A stretch of DNA of 53,703 nt from a virus: positions 1 through 53,703 of the IMG/VR virus record IMGVR_UViG_3300018939_000022; one strand, given 5' to 3'. Made by a program: the position numbers and the translations under genes. Each line of letters starts with the position of its first letter. The stretch's first letter is position 1. The notes beneath the pieces were generated by a model that was given only the letters and a program-made list of their open reading frames with translations, ran no database searches and was not told the origin of the DNA. Shown here piece after piece: positions 18,825-26,076 of the stretch.

Positions 18825-19874
18825 TTACACGCCTGCGTCAATGACCCAAACCCGCTGCTCGTCGGGGATGGGCATGGCGTTCAGTTGCGCCTCGATCCGA
18901 AGCTCGCGGCCCGTGATCTCCTCGTCGTAGAAGACCGTCACGCCCCGCGTGTCGATGCCGGCCTGCGGGAACTGGCGAACCAAGTCGTAGGCGCGCAGCA
19001 CGGGGACGAAGGCCGATGAGCCGATCCGGTTGTCCGCAGGCACGAAGGCGACGTTGCCGGCCTCAAACACCTTCGTCGAAGAGGTGGCCGTGCCGCCGTC
19101 CGTCGGCAGATCGACCGTGTCCTCGATGACGATGAACTCGAAGGGCGCACCGAGGTCGTCCTGCACGCGCTCGGCCAACTGCGCCCGCGTCATCTGCACG
19201 CCGTTGGCGAGGTCGGGCGCGTCGGCTTGGATCGCGCGCAGCGTGGCGAGGCGCAGCGCGACGCCGCGGCCCGCGCCGACCGCTTCGAGGCCGTCCTCGT
19301 ACCACGCGACCAGCTCGTCGTAGGCATTCACCCCGGCGTCGTCCCAGGCGGTCAAGGCCGTCGTGATGCGCGACGAGTCGATGCCGAACGAGGCGGCGAA
19401 GGTCTCGCCCGTCTGCGGGTGGCGCTGGGTGATTGAGCCGTTCAGCCACGCCTCGAACATGTCGAGTTCCAGCCGTCGGTAGTCCCCCAAGGCCATCTGA
19501 TCGACGCGAGAGGGGATGTCAACGGCCATCTCGCCCGCGACCAAAGCCTGATCGCCGTTGAAGCGCATCATCAGCTTCTGCATCTCCTCCTCGCCGATCA
19601 GGTCGTACATCTCAATCGGCACGATCTTGATCTGCCGGCGGGGCGGGATGCGCTTCGGGAGCAGTCGGCCGCGCTGGTTCCACTCGCGGCGGTCAGCCAC
19701 GGGGCGGAAGTCGAGCGTCGTCACGTCGTCCAAGGTCGTCGAGTTCACGTCCCGGCGGGGCATGAACCCGTTCCAGTAGAGCCGCCCCTGATCGGTGACG
19801 CTCTGCGCCTGAGCGCGCACCGTCAGCACGGCCGGGGACAGGTCTTCGATCTCCTCAATCCATGTCTTCGGCAT
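18825..19874 (-). CDS. Major capsid protein (lambda gpE-type)
   Basis: A 349-residue protein with strong Shine-Dalgarno, directly after the decoration gene and before the connector block. Features of the gpE-like HK97-fold family: RRDVNSTTLDD... N-terminal part, IPPRRQIKIVPIEMYDLI, a long spine helix around DYRRLELDMFEAWLNGSI, and a C-terminal P-domain with DEEITGRELRIEAQLNAMPIPDEQR. Mature-protein cleavage is not evident. Confidence 0.88.
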   Translation of the reverse strand: MPKTWIEEIEDLSPAVLTVRAQAQSVTDQGRLYWNGFMPRRDVNSTTLDDVTTLDFRPVADRREWNQRGRLLPKRIPPRRQIKIVPIEMYDLIGEEEMQKLMMRFNGDQALVAGEMAVDIPSRVDQMALGDYRRLELDMFEAWLNGSITQRHPQTGETFAASFGIDSSRITTALTAWDDAGVNAYDELVAWYEDGLEAVGAGRGVALRLATLRAIQADAPDLANGVQMTRAQLAERVQDDLGAPFEFIVIEDTVDLPTDGGTATSSTKVFEAGNVAFVPADNRIGSSAFVPVLRAYDLVRQFPQAGIDTRGVTVFYDEEITGRELRIEAQLNAMPIPDEQRVWVIDAGV

Positions 19875-21189: not shown

Positions 21190-21393
21190 TTATGCTTTTA
21201 TCAAATCACAGAGGTCGTCGAGTTCGTCTTGCAGGGTGTTGAACCGACGGCGCAGATCAAGGATGCGCGCCTTGACTTCCGGCGGAATGTTAGCACACTT
21301 TTCGCGGTCTGCGGGCGTGCCAGGGAATTTTTTTTCGCCCGCCTTGACCACCCTAATCGGCTGTCGGTGTGCGCTCACGGCTTCACAGAACAT
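21190..21393 (-). CDS. Small hypothetical protein (67 aa)
   Basis: Basic first half and a helical C-terminus (VKARILDLRRRFNTLQDELDDLCDLIKA) with heptad spacing, probably a short coiled coil. Overlaps the previous gene by 11 bases. Function unknown. Confidence 0.5.
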   Translation of the reverse strand: MFCEAVSAHRQPIRVVKAGEKKFPGTPADREKCANIPPEVKARILDLRRRFNTLQDELDDLCDLIKA

Positions 21394-21574
21394 CCTTCGA
21401 GGGTTCGGGTACGATCTCTAAACCGATGCCCTCGATCTCGATCTTGGCGGTAGTCAACGATTCTTCCTGATTAAACGTCCACTCGATTGACAACACGCCC
21501 TCCACCTCGCCGCCCCCGTCCGCGACGAGTTTCGTACCCTTGCGCGTGCCGTCAGAGATGATCTGAAGTTTCAC
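21383..21574 (-). CDS. Small beta-rich hypothetical protein (63 aa)
   Basis: GTG 21574 is preceded by GAGGGGG at 8 bases and follows the sigma-like gene directly. The body (LQIISDGTRKGTKLV, VLSIEWTFNQEESLTTAKIEIEGIGLEIV) is a pattern of strands seen in small phage proteins of unknown role. Confidence 0.55.
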   Translation of the reverse strand: MKLQIISDGTRKGTKLVADGGGEVEGVLSIEWTFNQEESLTTAKIEIEGIGLEIVPEPSKDVL

Positions 21575-21575
21575 G

Positions 21576-21845
21576 CTATCGCCCCCTCGCCCCCTCGCCC
21601 GTGCGGTCGTCAACCGGGGGCGGCGGCACTACCCTCACCGCTTCCCCCTCCTTCGCGATCCTCTTCAGTTCGGCAGATTTAAGGGGATCAACCCACTTCT
21701 CTCTAGCACGGTCGGGATACAAGTAGATGAATCGGATGATTCTCAACGTGCGCTTTTCTATTTGCCGCGCGCGTTCTCTTGAAACGCCAAGAACCTCTCC
21801 GACTTCGCGCAGGGTTTTACCGCCCATGCGCAGTGAATAAACCAC
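21576..21845 (-). CDS. Mini-protein with sigma-70 region 4-like helix-turn-helix
   Basis: Residues about 7-40 (MGGKTLREVGEVLGVSRERARQIEKRTLR) match sigma-70 region 4.2, which recognises the -35 element. Regions 1-3 and the rest of a sigma factor are missing. The remaining 50 residues are charged with a PPPP segment. Starts GTG 21845 or ATG 21827; neither has a well-placed Shine-Dalgarno. It precedes the capsid block in the late operon, so a role in late transcription is plausible but not shown. A small ParB- or Xre-like regulator is less likely given the RERARQIE motif. Confidence 0.75.
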   Translation of the reverse strand: MVYSLRMGGKTLREVGEVLGVSRERARQIEKRTLRIIRFIYLYPDRAREKWVDPLKSAELKRIAKEGEAVRVVPPPPVDDRTGEGARGR

Positions 21846-21855
21846 TCGTAGCGGC

Positions 21856-21908
21856 TTTGCCTCATAAGCCCTTTTTGCCTCATAAGTCGGCGGGCTGCCT
21901 CAAAAGTC
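21856..21908. repeat. Three imperfect direct repeats upstream of the sigma-like gene
   Basis: TGCCTCATAAG occurs at about 21858 and 21876 and as TGCCTCAAAAG at about 21896, spaced 18 and 20 bp. The minus-strand form is CTTATGAGGCA. They lie just upstream of the sigma-like start, so they could be binding sites, or a duplicated ribosome binding region since each contains GAGG. Confidence 0.45.
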
Positions 21909-22104
21909 ACGCCGCAGCCTTTCCGCTTCGTCGCCTCTTAGGTTCAGGGAAAGGCACTCCGCTATCCCTGAAATGCTCGAAAGAGCGGACGGACTTTTTG
22001 AGCGCGGCGATCTGCCTCTTGGCTTCCGCGATAGCCTCATCCCACTTGCTTAAATTTTTTTCCCCCGATTTGCTTAAAGTTGTGGACGCAGTTGTATTTT
22101 TCAT
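21907..22104 (-). CDS. Small coiled-coil hypothetical protein (65 aa)
   Basis: Strong Shine-Dalgarno (AGGAG, 6 bases). A central helix (SKWDEAIAEAKRQIAALKKSV) and basic tail (KRRRSGKAAA). Its start is only 26 bp from the divergent start at 22131, so the two ribosome binding sites occupy the whole gap and at least one promoter must overlap coding sequence. Confidence 0.6.
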   Translation of the reverse strand: MKNTTASTTLSKSGEKNLSKWDEAIAEAKRQIAALKKSVRSFEHFRDSGVPFPEPKRRRSGKAAA

Positions 22105-22130
22105 GTATGCTCCTTCCGTTGGAGGTGGTT

Positions 22131-22733
22131 ATGAGCAGCGACTACTGGAAAGAAGTTCTGACGACCGCAAAGGTAAGACTCTCCGAGTTGCGCGCGAGGC
22201 GCGACGAACTCGACGCGGAGCGTGAGGAAGTCAACCTCGAAATAGTGCAGTTGGAGCAGGTCGTGACGAACCTCTCGCCGCTGGTGGCTGAGCGCGCGCA
22301 AAGCCCGCTGATCTACAGCCTCATGTCCCCGCTTCCTACGAACCTCGCCGATGCCTGCCGTGAAGTTCTCAGGCAAGTCAAAAAGTACATGACCCCGATT
22401 GAGATTCGGAACACGCTTGCCGCAAGCGGGTATGACCTTAGCCAGCACAACAACCCGCTCGCGAGCATCCACGGCATTCTTAAGCGGTTGGCGGAGAGCG
22501 GCGAGGTCGAGGCACTCACACACGATCTCAAAGGTACTATGTATAGCTGGAAGAGTACGGGCGGCGTTCGCGTCCCCGGCTCGACCCCCAGTTCGGGTAC
22601 GCCCTACGACTTGCTGCCGCAGCGTCCCGCGAAGCCCGGACACCGCGCAGACCCGCCTCCCGCCGAAGGGCGAGGGCCTCTGAGGCGTCTGCCGCTGCCG
22701 CCTAAAGATAAAGAGGGGAAGAAAAGGGAATGA
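22131..22733 (+). CDS. Coiled-coil plus winged-helix (HARE-type HTH) protein
   Basis: A 200-residue rightward gene with GGAGG upstream. Residues about 15-50 form a coiled coil (LRARRDELDAEREEVNLEIVQLEQ). Residues about 72-130 form a winged helix with the HARE-HTH style core YMTPIEIRNTLAASGYDLSQ and ILKRLAESGEVEAL. The tail is proline-rich and basic and begins with GGVRVPGSTP, identical to a segment of the putative scaffold protein. Opposite to the late operon and part of an island with the tRNA and SWIM gene. Probably a DNA-binding regulator; target unknown. Confidence 0.75.
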   Translation: MSSDYWKEVLTTAKVRLSELRARRDELDAEREEVNLEIVQLEQVVTNLSPLVAERAQSPLIYSLMSPLPTNLADACREVLRQVKKYMTPIEIRNTLAASGYDLSQHNNPLASIHGILKRLAESGEVEALTHDLKGTMYSWKSTGGVRVPGSTPSSGTPYDLLPQRPAKPGHRADPPPAEGRGPLRRLPLPPKDKEGKKRE

Positions 22734-22749
22734 TGAGGAATTAGTTAAC

Positions 22750-22843
22750 GGGGGTCTGGGTGAGTGGTTTAAACCACTGGTCTGAGAAGCCAGCGACGGT
22801 GCTACCACACCGTCCGTCCGTTCAAATCGGACGACCCCCGCCA
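22750..22843 (+). tRNA. tRNA with GAG (Leu) anticodon on a serine-type body
   Basis: A complete 94-nt class II tRNA including encoded CCA. Perfect 7-bp acceptor (GGGGGTC/GACCCCC), D stem GGT/ACC, anticodon stem CTGGT/GCCAG, loop CTGAGAA with anticodon GAG, 6-bp variable stem ACGGTG/CACCGT, T stem GTCCG/CGGAC and T loop TTCAAAT. The anticodon reads Leu CUC, but the body has serine features: discriminator G73, G15-C48, A37, and D loop GAGTGGTTTAA. Leucine tRNAs normally have A73, A15-U48 and G37. By anticodon it is tRNA-Leu, by identity elements tRNA-Ser. Confidence 0.85.
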
Positions 22844-22851
22844 ACTTAGCA

Positions 22852-22883
22852 GCCACGGCGGAAGCGGTAACTTCCGCCGTGGC
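22852..22883 (+). terminator. Strong hairpin just after the tRNA
   Basis: A perfect 13-bp stem (GCCACGGCGGAAG and its complement) with a 6-base loop starts 8 bases after the CCA end. There is no following T run, so it is either a factor-assisted terminator or an RNA processing/stability element of the tRNA precursor. Confidence 0.5.
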
Positions 22884-22970
22884 ATTCAACCACACAGCCG
22901 AAGCTATGCGGCCTAAGCATCCGAAATTATAGCTTGACGCTGTGTGTTCACCAAGTGAGGAACACACGCC

Positions 22971-23225
22971 ATGTCCATCCGCGAACAGAAGGCCCGCCAG
23001 ATCATCGAGCGCGCCAACATCACCCGCAACGGCAACCTCTGGCTTGTCCCTTCCCAGTCGGGACGCGGACGCTACAAAGTTGACGCTGAGAAGCGAAGCT
23101 GCTCCTGCCCTGACTACGACTTTCGCCGCCAGCCCTGCAAGCACATCTTCGCCGTCGAGTTGATCGTCAAGCGCGGTACGATTGAAGATGTTAAATACGG
23201 AAAGACTTGGAAGCATGTTGACTAG
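22971..23225 (+). CDS. SWIM zinc-finger protein (84 aa)
   Basis: CSCPDYDFRRQPCKHIFAVE is a canonical SWIM motif (CxCxnCxH), preceded by a small strand module (LWLVPSQSGRGRYKVDAEKR). The same N-terminal module is found at the start of some SWIM-type transposases, but no catalytic domain follows here. GAGG lies 10 bases upstream, inside the loop of an 8-bp GTGTGTTC/GAACACAC hairpin that could control translation. The 3' end overlaps the portal gene tail to tail by 4 bp. Probably binds DNA or protein. Confidence 0.8.
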   Translation: MSIREQKARQIIERANITRNGNLWLVPSQSGRGRYKVDAEKRSCSCPDYDFRRQPCKHIFAVELIVKRGTIEDVKYGKTWKHVD

Positions 23226-24895
23226 GCGGCCTGCTGCGCGCCCCTCTTCTCACCCGCCGCCGAACTGTCCGGCCTTTCGGAACTGTCGGGCGCGGCCGGC
23301 GTCCCCGTAAGCTGACTCATCCTGACTCGCGCCGCTTCAATCAGTGTGTTTTCTTGATCGGTGTCCTCTACGCCCGTGGCGCGCTGCACCCGCTCTTTAG
23401 ACCAGACCCCCTTCTCCCACAGCGAGACGTACATCGTGACCTCTTCGGGCGTGACAGGCCCCGTGTCTATCCGGCAGTCGGCGTTGGCGCGCAGGGAGTC
23501 GAACCGTCCCGGCTGGCCTGAGAGCGTGGCGGCCATCGCCAGCACGGTTTCGAGCGCCCACCGGCACGCGGCGTCCACCTCGCCCTTCGTCGGGTTCAGG
23601 GAGAGGGCGAAGCCCCCGCGCGCCTGAACCCTTGAAACGCCCGTGGCCTGCGCGTCCCCCGCAATCAGCGTGTGAACCTGCTTGGACTCTTCGAGTATGT
23701 CCCGGTAGTCGGCCCGCTCGCTCCCGATGAACACGTCCACAGGCGACGGCTCACTCCGCTCGATGTAGGGCTGCTCGACGTGCTCCTTGCCTTCCCCGTC
23801 AGTCCACCTGAACCCCGTCCACGCATTGATGACGGGCGGGCCGCGCTTGATCGGGTCGGGCACGAATTTCTGTGAGCCGTCCGGTTGGGTTACGATCTTG
23901 CCGGGCAGATCGACGTTCAGGAGCGTCGTCTCGGCGAAGCCGGCGGTGTTGAGGTTGTGCCCCCTTAAGGTCTTGGCCTTGTTGAGCTGCTTGTTGCTCT
24001 GGACGATCTGCGGCGTGATGAAGGGCTTGCGCCGCATCTCGTAGATGAGCAGACGCCCGCCCAGGTCGAACGTGGCCGGCTCCGCGTCGGCCTCCCGCCG
24101 GGGCGTGGCGGAGAAAATCGACTGGTAGCTCGATTGTGGCGTGTACGGAACGGCCGGGTTGTTCTCATCCCTCAATACCTTCCAGACGGTCTCCTTCGCG
24201 TCGTTCAGGTAAGTTATCTCTGCGACTTCCTCCTCGCCGTCTTTGACCGCGAACACCCCGGCCTGGCGTCGGCTGTACGGGTCGGTCAGCACCGTGGCCT
24301 GATCGTAGGGCAGGGCCTCGACGAAGATTTTCTCTAAGGACTCTTCCAGCGGGGCGGTAGGGATCATCCCATTTTCCCCGACCTCTGCCGGCGGAATGAA
24401 GAGGCGCATCGGTGCGCGGGTCGTCTTGAGCAGCGTCTCGGTCGCGTCCTGAAAGACCTTCAGCATCCGCCGCTCGTTCCACCACACGGTCAGCGCGGCC
24501 TGCGCCTCCCGGATTAGGGCCTGCTCCTTTTCGTTCGGCTTCTCGTCCTCCGTGAGTTCGCGCCCGTCTAGGATTTCACCTTTCTTCGCCAGCGGCCTGC
24601 GGACGGTCAATGCCCACTCGATCTCGCGGCTCACCACCCCGTCGCGGTGGCCGTCCGTGATGTCGCGCACGGCGTTCTTGCTGGCGAACTCCTTTTCGAC
24701 CTTGTCGTAAGACGCCGGGTTGTTGCGGTCGCCGTCGGCCGGCTGCGGCCCCGTCCAGAATCGGCCTTTGTCGAAGTGCTCGCCGTCGTAGAAGAGGAGG
24801 TTGTCGGCCGCGCCCCACTTGTCGGCCTCTTTCTTGGCCCCCGTGACGGCCTCGGCTATCTGGCGGCGGGTCAACGTGTCGAATTGGATTCTCAT
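23222..24895 (-). CDS. Portal protein
   Basis: A 557-residue protein directly after the large terminase, its ATG overlapping the terminase stop. It has the stem and wing composition of portal proteins (alpha-helical C-terminal half with VTPEEVTMYVSLWEKGVWSKERVQR, the typical 'increase in E/Y-v' segment seen in SPP1/HK97-type portals). The dodecameric portal forms the DNA entry vertex and binds the terminase. ATG 24895 is chosen over an upstream in-frame start because of the overlap. Confidence 0.88.
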   Translation of the reverse strand: MRIQFDTLTRRQIAEAVTGAKKEADKWGAADNLLFYDGEHFDKGRFWTGPQPADGDRNNPASYDKVEKEFASKNAVRDITDGHRDGVVSREIEWALTVRRPLAKKGEILDGRELTEDEKPNEKEQALIREAQAALTVWWNERRMLKVFQDATETLLKTTRAPMRLFIPPAEVGENGMIPTAPLEESLEKIFVEALPYDQATVLTDPYSRRQAGVFAVKDGEEEVAEITYLNDAKETVWKVLRDENNPAVPYTPQSSYQSIFSATPRREADAEPATFDLGGRLLIYEMRRKPFITPQIVQSNKQLNKAKTLRGHNLNTAGFAETTLLNVDLPGKIVTQPDGSQKFVPDPIKRGPPVINAWTGFRWTDGEGKEHVEQPYIERSEPSPVDVFIGSERADYRDILEESKQVHTLIAGDAQATGVSRVQARGGFALSLNPTKGEVDAACRWALETVLAMAATLSGQPGRFDSLRANADCRIDTGPVTPEEVTMYVSLWEKGVWSKERVQRATGVEDTDQENTLIEAARVRMSQLTGTPAAPDSSERPDSSAAGEKRGAQQAA

Positions 24896-26076
24896 CCCGA
24901 ATGCACCCCGCTGAATGACTTGGTGATCTGCGGCTCGCGCGGCAGACTCAGCCACTCCGTGCCGTACCGCCCGCCGTCAATGGCGTGGTTGTCGAAGTCA
25001 ATCACCTCGTCCAAAATCTGCCCGGTTTTCTTATCCTTTTTCCAACTGTAACGCTTGGCCTCTCGCAATAGGTTTGCGCTGCCTTCGTGGATTCGGAGCG
25101 GCCTCGACTTCACGCGATCAATACTGGCCTTGACAGAACCCGGCCCTTTATACGCGCCCACGATCTTGAAGCCCGCGCGCCGTATCTCTTCAATGGTTTT
25201 CGGCTCAGCCGAGTCTGCGACGATGTATGAGGTTGCGAGTTCGGGGATTTCCTTCAACTTCTCTATCAGATCGGCTGTGGTTAATTTTGTTTGGTATAGC
25301 ATCTCACGCCAGTACAACTCGGCGTCATACAGCCGCGTTTCCGTTAGCGCGGTCGGCTCGTTGTAGCCGAAGTCCAAGCCGTAGGCGGCTGCACCCTTGC
25401 CATGGGGGTAGGCGGCATCCGTGACGGTTTTCCAGTGGGTGAAGACCCGCGTAGAACCCGAACCTATCTCTCCGAGTCCGTAAACCTTCCAGTAATCCTC
25501 GTCCACGTCGCGCAGCCTTTCGATCTCAGAGACAAGCGACTCCTCAAGAAACGGGTTGTCTCTGTAGGTGGTCACACACAGTTCGCTGTCGTCGCGCATT
25601 TCCACCTGATCGTAAATCCAAGAGAACGGGTCAGACGGGTTGTAGTCTAAGACGATCTTGTCGGTCGTTCTGAGGGCCAACTGCCGGAATGACTCAAGCT
25701 CATTCTCGTTGGCCTCGTTCAAGAACAAGACGTTGCGCTTGCGCCCCCTCACCCGCTCTGCCTGATCCACTCCGATGAACTCGAAGAGGTTGGAGCCTAA
25801 CTGATACTCGTTATTGCTTTTGTTGTGGCTCGACTCCCGGTATAAATCCAGACGGTTTAGAATCTCGAAGAAGTCGCGCATGGCGGACGCGCGGAGGGCA
25901 GGCAGAGTGTTTCGCGCGACCGTGCAGACTTCCCCCTGCGCGAGTCGCGCCCACACGAGAATGAGAAACAATAGGACGTTGTAGGTCTTCCCCGAACGAG
26001 TGCCGCCGCGCAAAGATGTGATTCGCGCGCGGGACTTGTTCAAGACGCGGAAGACCTTATTCGTCCGAATCTCCAT
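24892..26076 (-). CDS. Terminase large subunit
   Basis: Packaging ATPase-nuclease of 394 residues from ATG 26076. Walker A is GGTRSGKTY near residue 25, Walker B is VLFLNEANE near 115, and the coupling motif is near LDYNPSD. The RNase H-like nuclease has acidic residues in YGLDFGYNEPTAL, IVADSAEPKTIEEIR and DFDNHAIDGGRYG. This is the PBSX/Terminase_3-like family. It overlaps the small subunit gene by 20 bp. Confidence 0.95.
   Translation of the reverse strand: MEIRTNKVFRVLNKSRARITSLRGGTRSGKTYNVLLFLILVWARLAQGEVCTVARNTLPALRASAMRDFFEILNRLDLYRESSHNKSNNEYQLGSNLFEFIGVDQAERVRGRKRNVLFLNEANENELESFRQLALRTTDKIVLDYNPSDPFSWIYDQVEMRDDSELCVTTYRDNPFLEESLVSEIERLRDVDEDYWKVYGLGEIGSGSTRVFTHWKTVTDAAYPHGKGAAAYGLDFGYNEPTALTETRLYDAELYWREMLYQTKLTTADLIEKLKEIPELATSYIVADSAEPKTIEEIRRAGFKIVGAYKGPGSVKASIDRVKSRPLRIHEGSANLLREAKRYSWKKDKKTGQILDEVIDFDNHAIDGGRYGTEWLSLPREPQITKSFSGVHSG

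What the first reader, a model, noticed from the sequence alone, without database searches (positions are those of the whole stretch)
22750..22843. tRNA with leucine anticodon GAG on a serine-type body
The fold is complete, yet G73, G15-C48, A37 and the D-loop GAGTGGTTTAA are serine tRNA features, while the anticodon GAG reads leucine CUC. The loop CTGAGAA equals the serine GGA loop CTGGAAA with bases 35 and 36 exchanged. Seryl-tRNA synthetase does not read the anticodon and LeuRS needs A73, so this tRNA could put serine at CUC, a common codon in such GC-rich genes. Alternatives are an uncharged decoy or a regulatory RNA. The tRNA body and anticodon are seen; mistranslation is inference.
Basis: partly seen in the sequence, partly recalled or inferred. 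Interest (0 to 1): 0.82.

Follow-up and report, generated by a model that had tools for sequence, protein, structure and literature searches.

The report
Phage serine tRNA with leucine anticodon
This virus of bacteria carries an intact transfer-RNA gene whose body is built to be loaded with serine but whose anticodon reads leucine codons, so if it is made it should sometimes put serine where leucine belongs; such a tRNA is known from Candida yeasts, but I found no report of one from a phage.

Summary
The only tRNA in this 53.7-kb phage contig (22750-22843, +) is complete: every stem is paired and CCA is encoded. Its body is serine-type and its anticodon is GAG (Leu CUC/CUU). With the anticodon masked, a Ser covariance model gives 77.4 bits and a Leu model 25.1; three real tRNALeu(GAG) controls give the reverse. 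All 182 comparison tRNALeu have A73 and 181 have U48; the window has G73, C48 and the serine variable-arm geometry. A37 is not a serine sign, and the GGA-swap origin is not favoured. The whole 17-nt anticodon arm equals that of phage tRNALeu(UAG) except base 34, while D-arm, variable arm and T-arm are those of phage tRNASer(UGA). It is therefore a chimera. CUC was not reassigned: CTC positions align to Leu in homologues. Most likely SerRS charges it and it competes weakly with host tRNALeu, giving occasional Leu-to-Ser errors; benefit, expression and host are unknown. It is very rare: one further structurally intact case (viral, CAG) and a few degraded ones in 2.9 million viral contigs and 84,980 genomes. 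New variant of a known kind (Candida tRNASer-CAG, Streptomyces tRNAProX).

The parts
22750..22843 (+). tRNA gene, Ser-type body with Leu anticodon GAG, CCA encoded
   Evidence: ARAGORN; Rfam RF00005 52.5 bits; Ser CM 77.4 vs Leu CM 25.1 bits
22757..22776 (+). D-arm TGGGTGAGTGGTTTAAACCA (positions 8-26), serine-type
   Evidence: the exact 20-mer is found in 25 tRNASer(UGA), 2 tRNASer(GCU) and no other Leu tRNA in the collected set
22777..22793 (+). anticodon arm CTGGT-CTGAGAA-GCCAG (27-43), Leu-type
   Evidence: identical to phage tRNALeu(UAG) arms of L325 and L367 except base 34
22784..22786 (+). anticodon GAG (reads CUC, CUU)
   Evidence: centre of a 7-nt loop
22794..22815 (+). variable region: C44, 7-bp stem, C48, no unpaired base before 48 (serine geometry)
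   Evidence: geometry in 155 of 167 Ser with a measurable stem, 0 of 106 Leu; C48 in 184/208 Ser, U48 in 181/182 Leu
22816..22832 (+). T-arm GTCCG-TTCAAAT-CGGAC
   Evidence: identical 17-mer in phage tRNASer(UGA) L254
22840..22843 (+). discriminator G73 and CCA end
   Evidence: G73 in 187/208 Ser, A73 in 182/182 Leu
22852..22883 (+). 13-bp hairpin directly 3' of the tRNA, no U-run; possible transcription end
   Evidence: fold, z = -4.56, 0 of 200 shuffles as stable
22131..22733 (+). upstream ORF ending 17 nt before the tRNA (from the internal ATG of ORF 22080-22733); no family hit
22971..23225 (+). downstream small SWIM zinc-finger protein, same strand
   Evidence: Pfam PF04434 1.5e-9

Best explanation
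A phage-borne chimeric tRNA: a serine-acceptor body derived from a phage tRNASer (most likely the UGA isoacceptor) carrying a leucine-type anticodon arm with anticodon GAG. If transcribed, host SerRS should charge it with serine, LeuRS should reject it (G73), and it should read CUC and CUU in competition with host tRNALeu(GAG), putting Ser at a small share of Leu codons. Shown: gene, structure, isotype conflict, likely origin, no codon reassignment. Inferred: transcription, charging, decoding. Unknown: whether the phage gains anything.
For: Ser CM 77.4 vs Leu CM 25.1 bits with anticodon masked, with correct controls. HMM agrees. G73, C48 and variable-arm geometry are Ser and essentially absent in 182 Leu. 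Published bacterial Ser determinants G73, C72, G2-C71, R4-Y69, large variable arm and G30-C40 are all present; Leu needs A73, and G73 is an anti-determinant against LeuRS (PMC9976931). The tree places it among tRNASer(UGA). The anticodon arm is one seen in intact phage tRNALeu(UAG). Paired acceptor and T-stem that differ from the closest relatives (L308) by compensated changes argue against simple decay (sequences).
Against: No expression, charging or proteomic data. No sigma-70-like promoter found in 21800-23300. No close viral relative was found, so conservation of the gene cannot be tested. CUC plus CUU make up about 31 of 1000 codons, so efficient misreading would be costly. C11-G24, a minor E. 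coli Ser element, is G11-C24 here (but this is normal in this phage tRNASer class).
Confidence: 0.6

Rival explanations
1. A recent evolutionary accident: tRNASer recombined with or mutated towards a tRNALeu arm in a phage, little expressed or poorly used, on its way to loss. No function.
For: Rare and scattered: one further structurally intact viral case (L125) and several with broken acceptor stems (L117, L085; L080 and L095 look similar). No visible promoter. CUC is common in the phage's own genes.
Against: All stems are paired, CCA is encoded and conserved tRNA bases are intact, unlike the degraded cases; but decay needs time to show.
Confidence: 0.27
2. Decoy or defence-evasion RNA: the altered anticodon arm absorbs or escapes an anticodon nuclease, without decoding as its main role.
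For: Phage tRNAs with altered anticodon loops that evade host nucleases are reported; NGA serine tRNAs are cleaved at GA inside the anticodon and mycobacteriophages avoid them (PMC10264068).
Against: A changed anticodon cannot replace a cleaved tRNASer. The loop is a normal decoding loop of phage tRNALeu. No nuclease partner identified.
Confidence: 0.07
3. It is a working tRNALeu: the host LeuRS accepts G73, so CUC is read correctly.
For: Anticodon and anticodon arm are Leu-type; host unknown.
Against: All 182 comparison tRNALeu have A73 and 181 have U48. Leu CM is 52 bits below Ser CM. No bacterial clade with such a tRNALeu appeared in the 84,980-genome scan.
Confidence: 0.04
4. Assembly or sequencing artefact in the anticodon arm.
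For: A single metagenomic contig; no reads available.
Against: Both strands of the arm agree (5/5 paired). Two junctions within 17 nt, or several base errors that keep pairing and give a known arm, are unlikely. Both flanks are one minus-strand late-gene module.
Confidence: 0.02

Closest known systems
Candida CUG-clade tRNASer(CAG)
   Same: serine body, leucine anticodon, charged by SerRS; the CUG-Ser2 version also has A37 (PMC11415595)
   Different: eukaryotic, reads CUG, drove codon reassignment; here anticodon GAG, in a phage, and no reassignment
Streptomyces/Kitasatospora tRNAProX family with ProRSx
   Same: bacterial tRNA with the wrong anticodon for its body, shown to mistranslate (PMC10365949)
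   Different: proline body, partner synthetase next to it; no synthetase hit among the ORFs scanned here
Phage tRNASer(UGA) with D-arm GGTGAGTGG..AAACC
   Same: body: D-arm, variable arm, T-arm, G73
   Different: anticodon UGA and U31-A39
Phage tRNALeu(UAG) such as L325 and L367
   Same: 17-nt anticodon arm except base 34
   Different: body with A73, U48 and Leu D-arm
L125 viral tRNA (Ser body, anticodon CAG)
   Same: intact acceptor, G73, CTCAGAA loop, U31.G39, Ser CM 82.2 vs Leu CM 45.2
   Different: different anticodon, different D-arm, CCA not fully encoded, unrelated contig

Membership tests
tRNASer (serine acceptor) | G73 discriminator | tested here: met
   G73; 187/208 Ser and 0/182 Leu
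tRNASer (serine acceptor) | long variable arm, one base before and none after its stem, C48 | tested here: met
tRNASer (serine acceptor) | isotype model prefers Ser | tested here: met
   77.4 vs 25.1 bits
tRNASer (serine acceptor) | G1-C72, G2-C71, R4-Y69, G30-C40 determinants | tested here: met
   all present in the sequence against the list of PMC9976931
tRNASer (serine acceptor) | C11-G24 | tested here: not met
   G11-C24, as in this whole class of phage tRNASer; a minor element
tRNASer (serine acceptor) | serine anticodon | tested here: not met
   GAG; SerRS does not read it
tRNALeu | A73 | tested here: not met
   G73; 182/182 Leu have A73
tRNALeu | Leu anticodon and anticodon arm | tested here: met
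   GAG; arm as L325/L367
Mistranslating (chimeric) tRNAs | body and anticodon of different amino acids in an intact tRNA | tested here: met
Mistranslating (chimeric) tRNAs | wrong amino acid shown in protein | not testable with these tools
   needs charging assay and mass spectrometry
Codon-reassigning tRNA (Candida type) | CUC positions correspond to Ser in homologues | tested here: not met
   CTC aligns to Leu 53%, Ser 3%, like CTG
tRNA-dependent lysogeny tRNA | tyrosine integrase with attP overlapping a tRNA, phage tRNA of the same isotype | tested here: not met
   integrase hit is a large serine recombinase; attP not located

The most novel reading that the evidence does not exclude
A phage keeps, under selection, a dedicated sense-codon mistranslating tRNA that inserts serine at leucine CUC/CUU codons during lysogeny or infection.
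Probability: 0.2. Interest if true: 0.82.

Novelty: new variant of a known kind. Interest (0 to 1): 0.52.

Why it matters
Natural tRNAs with mismatched body and anticodon are known in yeasts and in some Streptomyces, where they cause deliberate mistranslation. I found no report of a phage carrying one for a sense codon (paper searches; most subscription papers are not held). If it works, phages can bend the code of their hosts beyond stop codons, and the tRNA is a small, easily tested unit. It also warns that anticodon-based annotation calls this tRNA 'Leu'.

Tried and rejected
Origin from tRNASer(GGA) by swapping bases 35/36: disfavoured, body similarity lower (best 49 of 77, versus 61 for UGA and 58 for GCU; only 14 GGA in the set). 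Origin from tRNASer(UGA) by deleting U34 and inserting G: possible, but the arm match to phage tRNALeu(UAG) is simpler. Origin from tRNASer(GCU) by two substitutions: possible, body fits less well. tRNATyr body: rejected (all Tyr A73; Tyr HMM 8.6 bits versus Ser 29.7). CUC reassignment: rejected. Attachment-site relic: unlikely, the serine recombinase lies 28 kb away and no second copy of the tRNA sequence is in the window. Similar DNA in phage and plasmid records: none. Close phage relatives: terminase relatives are at most 49% identical and none of the loci held has a tRNA. A D-arm pattern was first run with wrong spacing; it happened to collect the tRNASer(UGA) set that proved useful. Relatives of the upstream ORF: none found.

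Full report
WHAT IS THERE. The window is a 53.7-kb virus record from IMG/VR, of unknown completeness. It holds a tailed phage: terminase, major head protein, DNA methyltransferases, helicase, and a large serine recombinase near the right end. ARAGORN finds one tRNA, 22750-22843 on the plus strand, anticodon GAG, confirmed by Rfam at 52.5 bits. It lies on the plus strand inside a minus-strand late-gene block, between the gene after the terminase (23222-24955, probably portal by position) and the block leading to the head protein (18825-19874). Its plus-strand neighbours are an ORF ending 17 nt upstream and a small SWIM zinc-finger gene downstream. A 13-bp hairpin follows the tRNA at 22852-22883 (z -4.56); no sigma-70-like promoter was seen.

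BODY VERSUS ANTICODON. I collected 208 tRNASer, 182 tRNALeu and 78 tRNATyr from bacterial genomes and viral contigs and parsed them. All 182 Leu have A73 and 181 have U48; none shows the geometry 'one free base before the variable stem, none after'. The window has G73, C48 and exactly that geometry, as most Ser do. Profile HMMs with the anticodon loop masked score the window 24.5 bits as Ser and nothing as Leu; in five-fold cross-validation all 108 controls fell on the correct side. Covariance models built here with masked anticodons give Ser 77.4 and Leu 25.1 bits. Real tRNALeu(GAG) in L200, L203 and L207 give Leu 78-80 and Ser 36-43; real phage tRNASer give Ser 78-89. A tree without the anticodon puts the window inside the Ser half, next to tRNASer(UGA). 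The isotype/anticodon conflict is therefore solid.

ORIGIN. Leaving out the anticodon arm, the best body matches are phage tRNASer(UGA), led by L308 (61 of 77 positions). The 20-nt D-arm is identical in 25 tRNASer(UGA) and 2 tRNASer(GCU), and the T-arm 17-mer recurs only in tRNASer(UGA) L254. These counts carry sampling bias, because one scan picked UGA tRNAs and another GCU and Tyr tRNAs. The anticodon arm CTGGT-CTGAGAA-GCCAG equals that of phage tRNALeu(UAG) in L325 and L367 except base 34. U31.G39 occurs in 16 of 182 Leu but 3 of 208 Ser, and loops CTNAGAA with A37 are common in phage tRNALeu. L325 carries both a tRNASer(UGA) with this D-arm and a tRNALeu(UAG) with this anticodon arm, so both would-be parents can sit in one phage. 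Arm exchange plus U34G is the simplest account; step-wise substitution is not excluded, since a Ser(UGA) arm such as L152's differs outside the anticodon only at base 39.

WHAT IT PROBABLY DOES. Bacterial SerRS recognises the variable arm and acceptor stem and ignores the anticodon; leucine identity in E. coli depends on A73, and G73 is listed as an anti-determinant against LeuRS (PMC9976931). The window has every listed bacterial Ser determinant except C11-G24, which this class of phage tRNASer also lacks. So, by established rules, it should be serylated and should read CUC and CUU. This step is inference. CUC has not been reassigned: in six gene families, residues aligned to the window's CTC codons are Leu 53% and Ser 3%, like CTG codons (Leu 42%, Ser 0.6%), whereas Ser codons align to Ser in about a third of cases. 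CTC and CTT together are about 31 per 1000 codons (ORF set chosen by length, some frames may be wrong), so even low misreading would touch many proteins. The tRNA is therefore either weak, restricted in time, or without use. I give about 0.6 to a serine-charged tRNA able to mistranslate, 0.27 to a functionless accident, and the rest to decoy, true Leu tRNA or artefact.

HOW RARE. The exact combination GAGTGGnnnAA-N9-CTGAGAA gave 52 chance hits and no other tRNA in 2.9 million viral contigs. Broader patterns in viral contigs and in 84,980 genomes found the following Ser-body/Leu-anticodon tRNAs. L125: viral, CAG, acceptor intact, G73. L117: viral, GAG, acceptor mismatch, C73. L085: Micavibrio MAG, AAG, two acceptor mismatches. 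L108: Chloroflexi MAG, CAG, T73, alone among 400 Chloroflexota. L080, L095 and L110: Bacteroidales, AAG, A73, poor acceptor. These were found because the pattern looks for them; among about 1,600 other tRNAs surveyed no further clear Ser-body/Leu-anticodon case appeared. The kind recurs but is very rare and mostly degraded, which fits both accident and short-lived use.

COMPARISON. The nearest natural analogue is tRNASer(CAG) of the Candida CUG clades; the CUG-Ser2 form also has A37 (PMC11415595). Streptomyces tRNAProX shows that bacteria keep mistranslating chimeric tRNAs, there with a partner synthetase (PMC10365949); none was seen among the ORFs scanned here. Phage tRNAs with changed anticodon loops that evade nucleases (PMC10264068) and tRNA-dependent lysogeny (PMC10865867) are alternatives considered; neither fits well. 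It works, on paper, like a mistranslating tRNA; membership in that class needs charging and protein data.

Noticed in passing
L380, L425, L430 (viral contigs): tRNACys(GCA) with a long, serine-like variable arm and D-arm GGTGAGTGG..AAACC but U73, the Cys discriminator: type-II-shaped tRNACys in viruses.
   Followed up: no
L125 3014-3101: Second structurally intact viral tRNA with Ser body and Leu anticodon (CAG), also U31.G39 and A37; clusters with L108 from a Chloroflexi MAG.
   Followed up: partly
L080, L095, L110: Bacteroidales contigs with Ser-like tRNA bodies, anticodon AAG, A73 and poorly paired acceptor stems; probably relics.
   Followed up: partly
window 22852-22883: Very stable 13-bp hairpin straight after the tRNA, without a T-run.
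   Followed up: partly
window 21190-23225: Lower-GC stretch among the late genes with a sigma-70 region 4-like small ORF (21576-21845, -) and a plus-strand cassette (ORF, tRNA, SWIM protein); looks like an inserted accessory segment.
   Followed up: partly
Viral loci with tRNA arrays (e.g. L302, L321, L325): Inner anticodon arm GGTCT-NNN-AAGCC with U31.G39 recurs across many phage tRNA isotypes (Met, Trp, Val, Ile, Phe, Leu).
   Followed up: no
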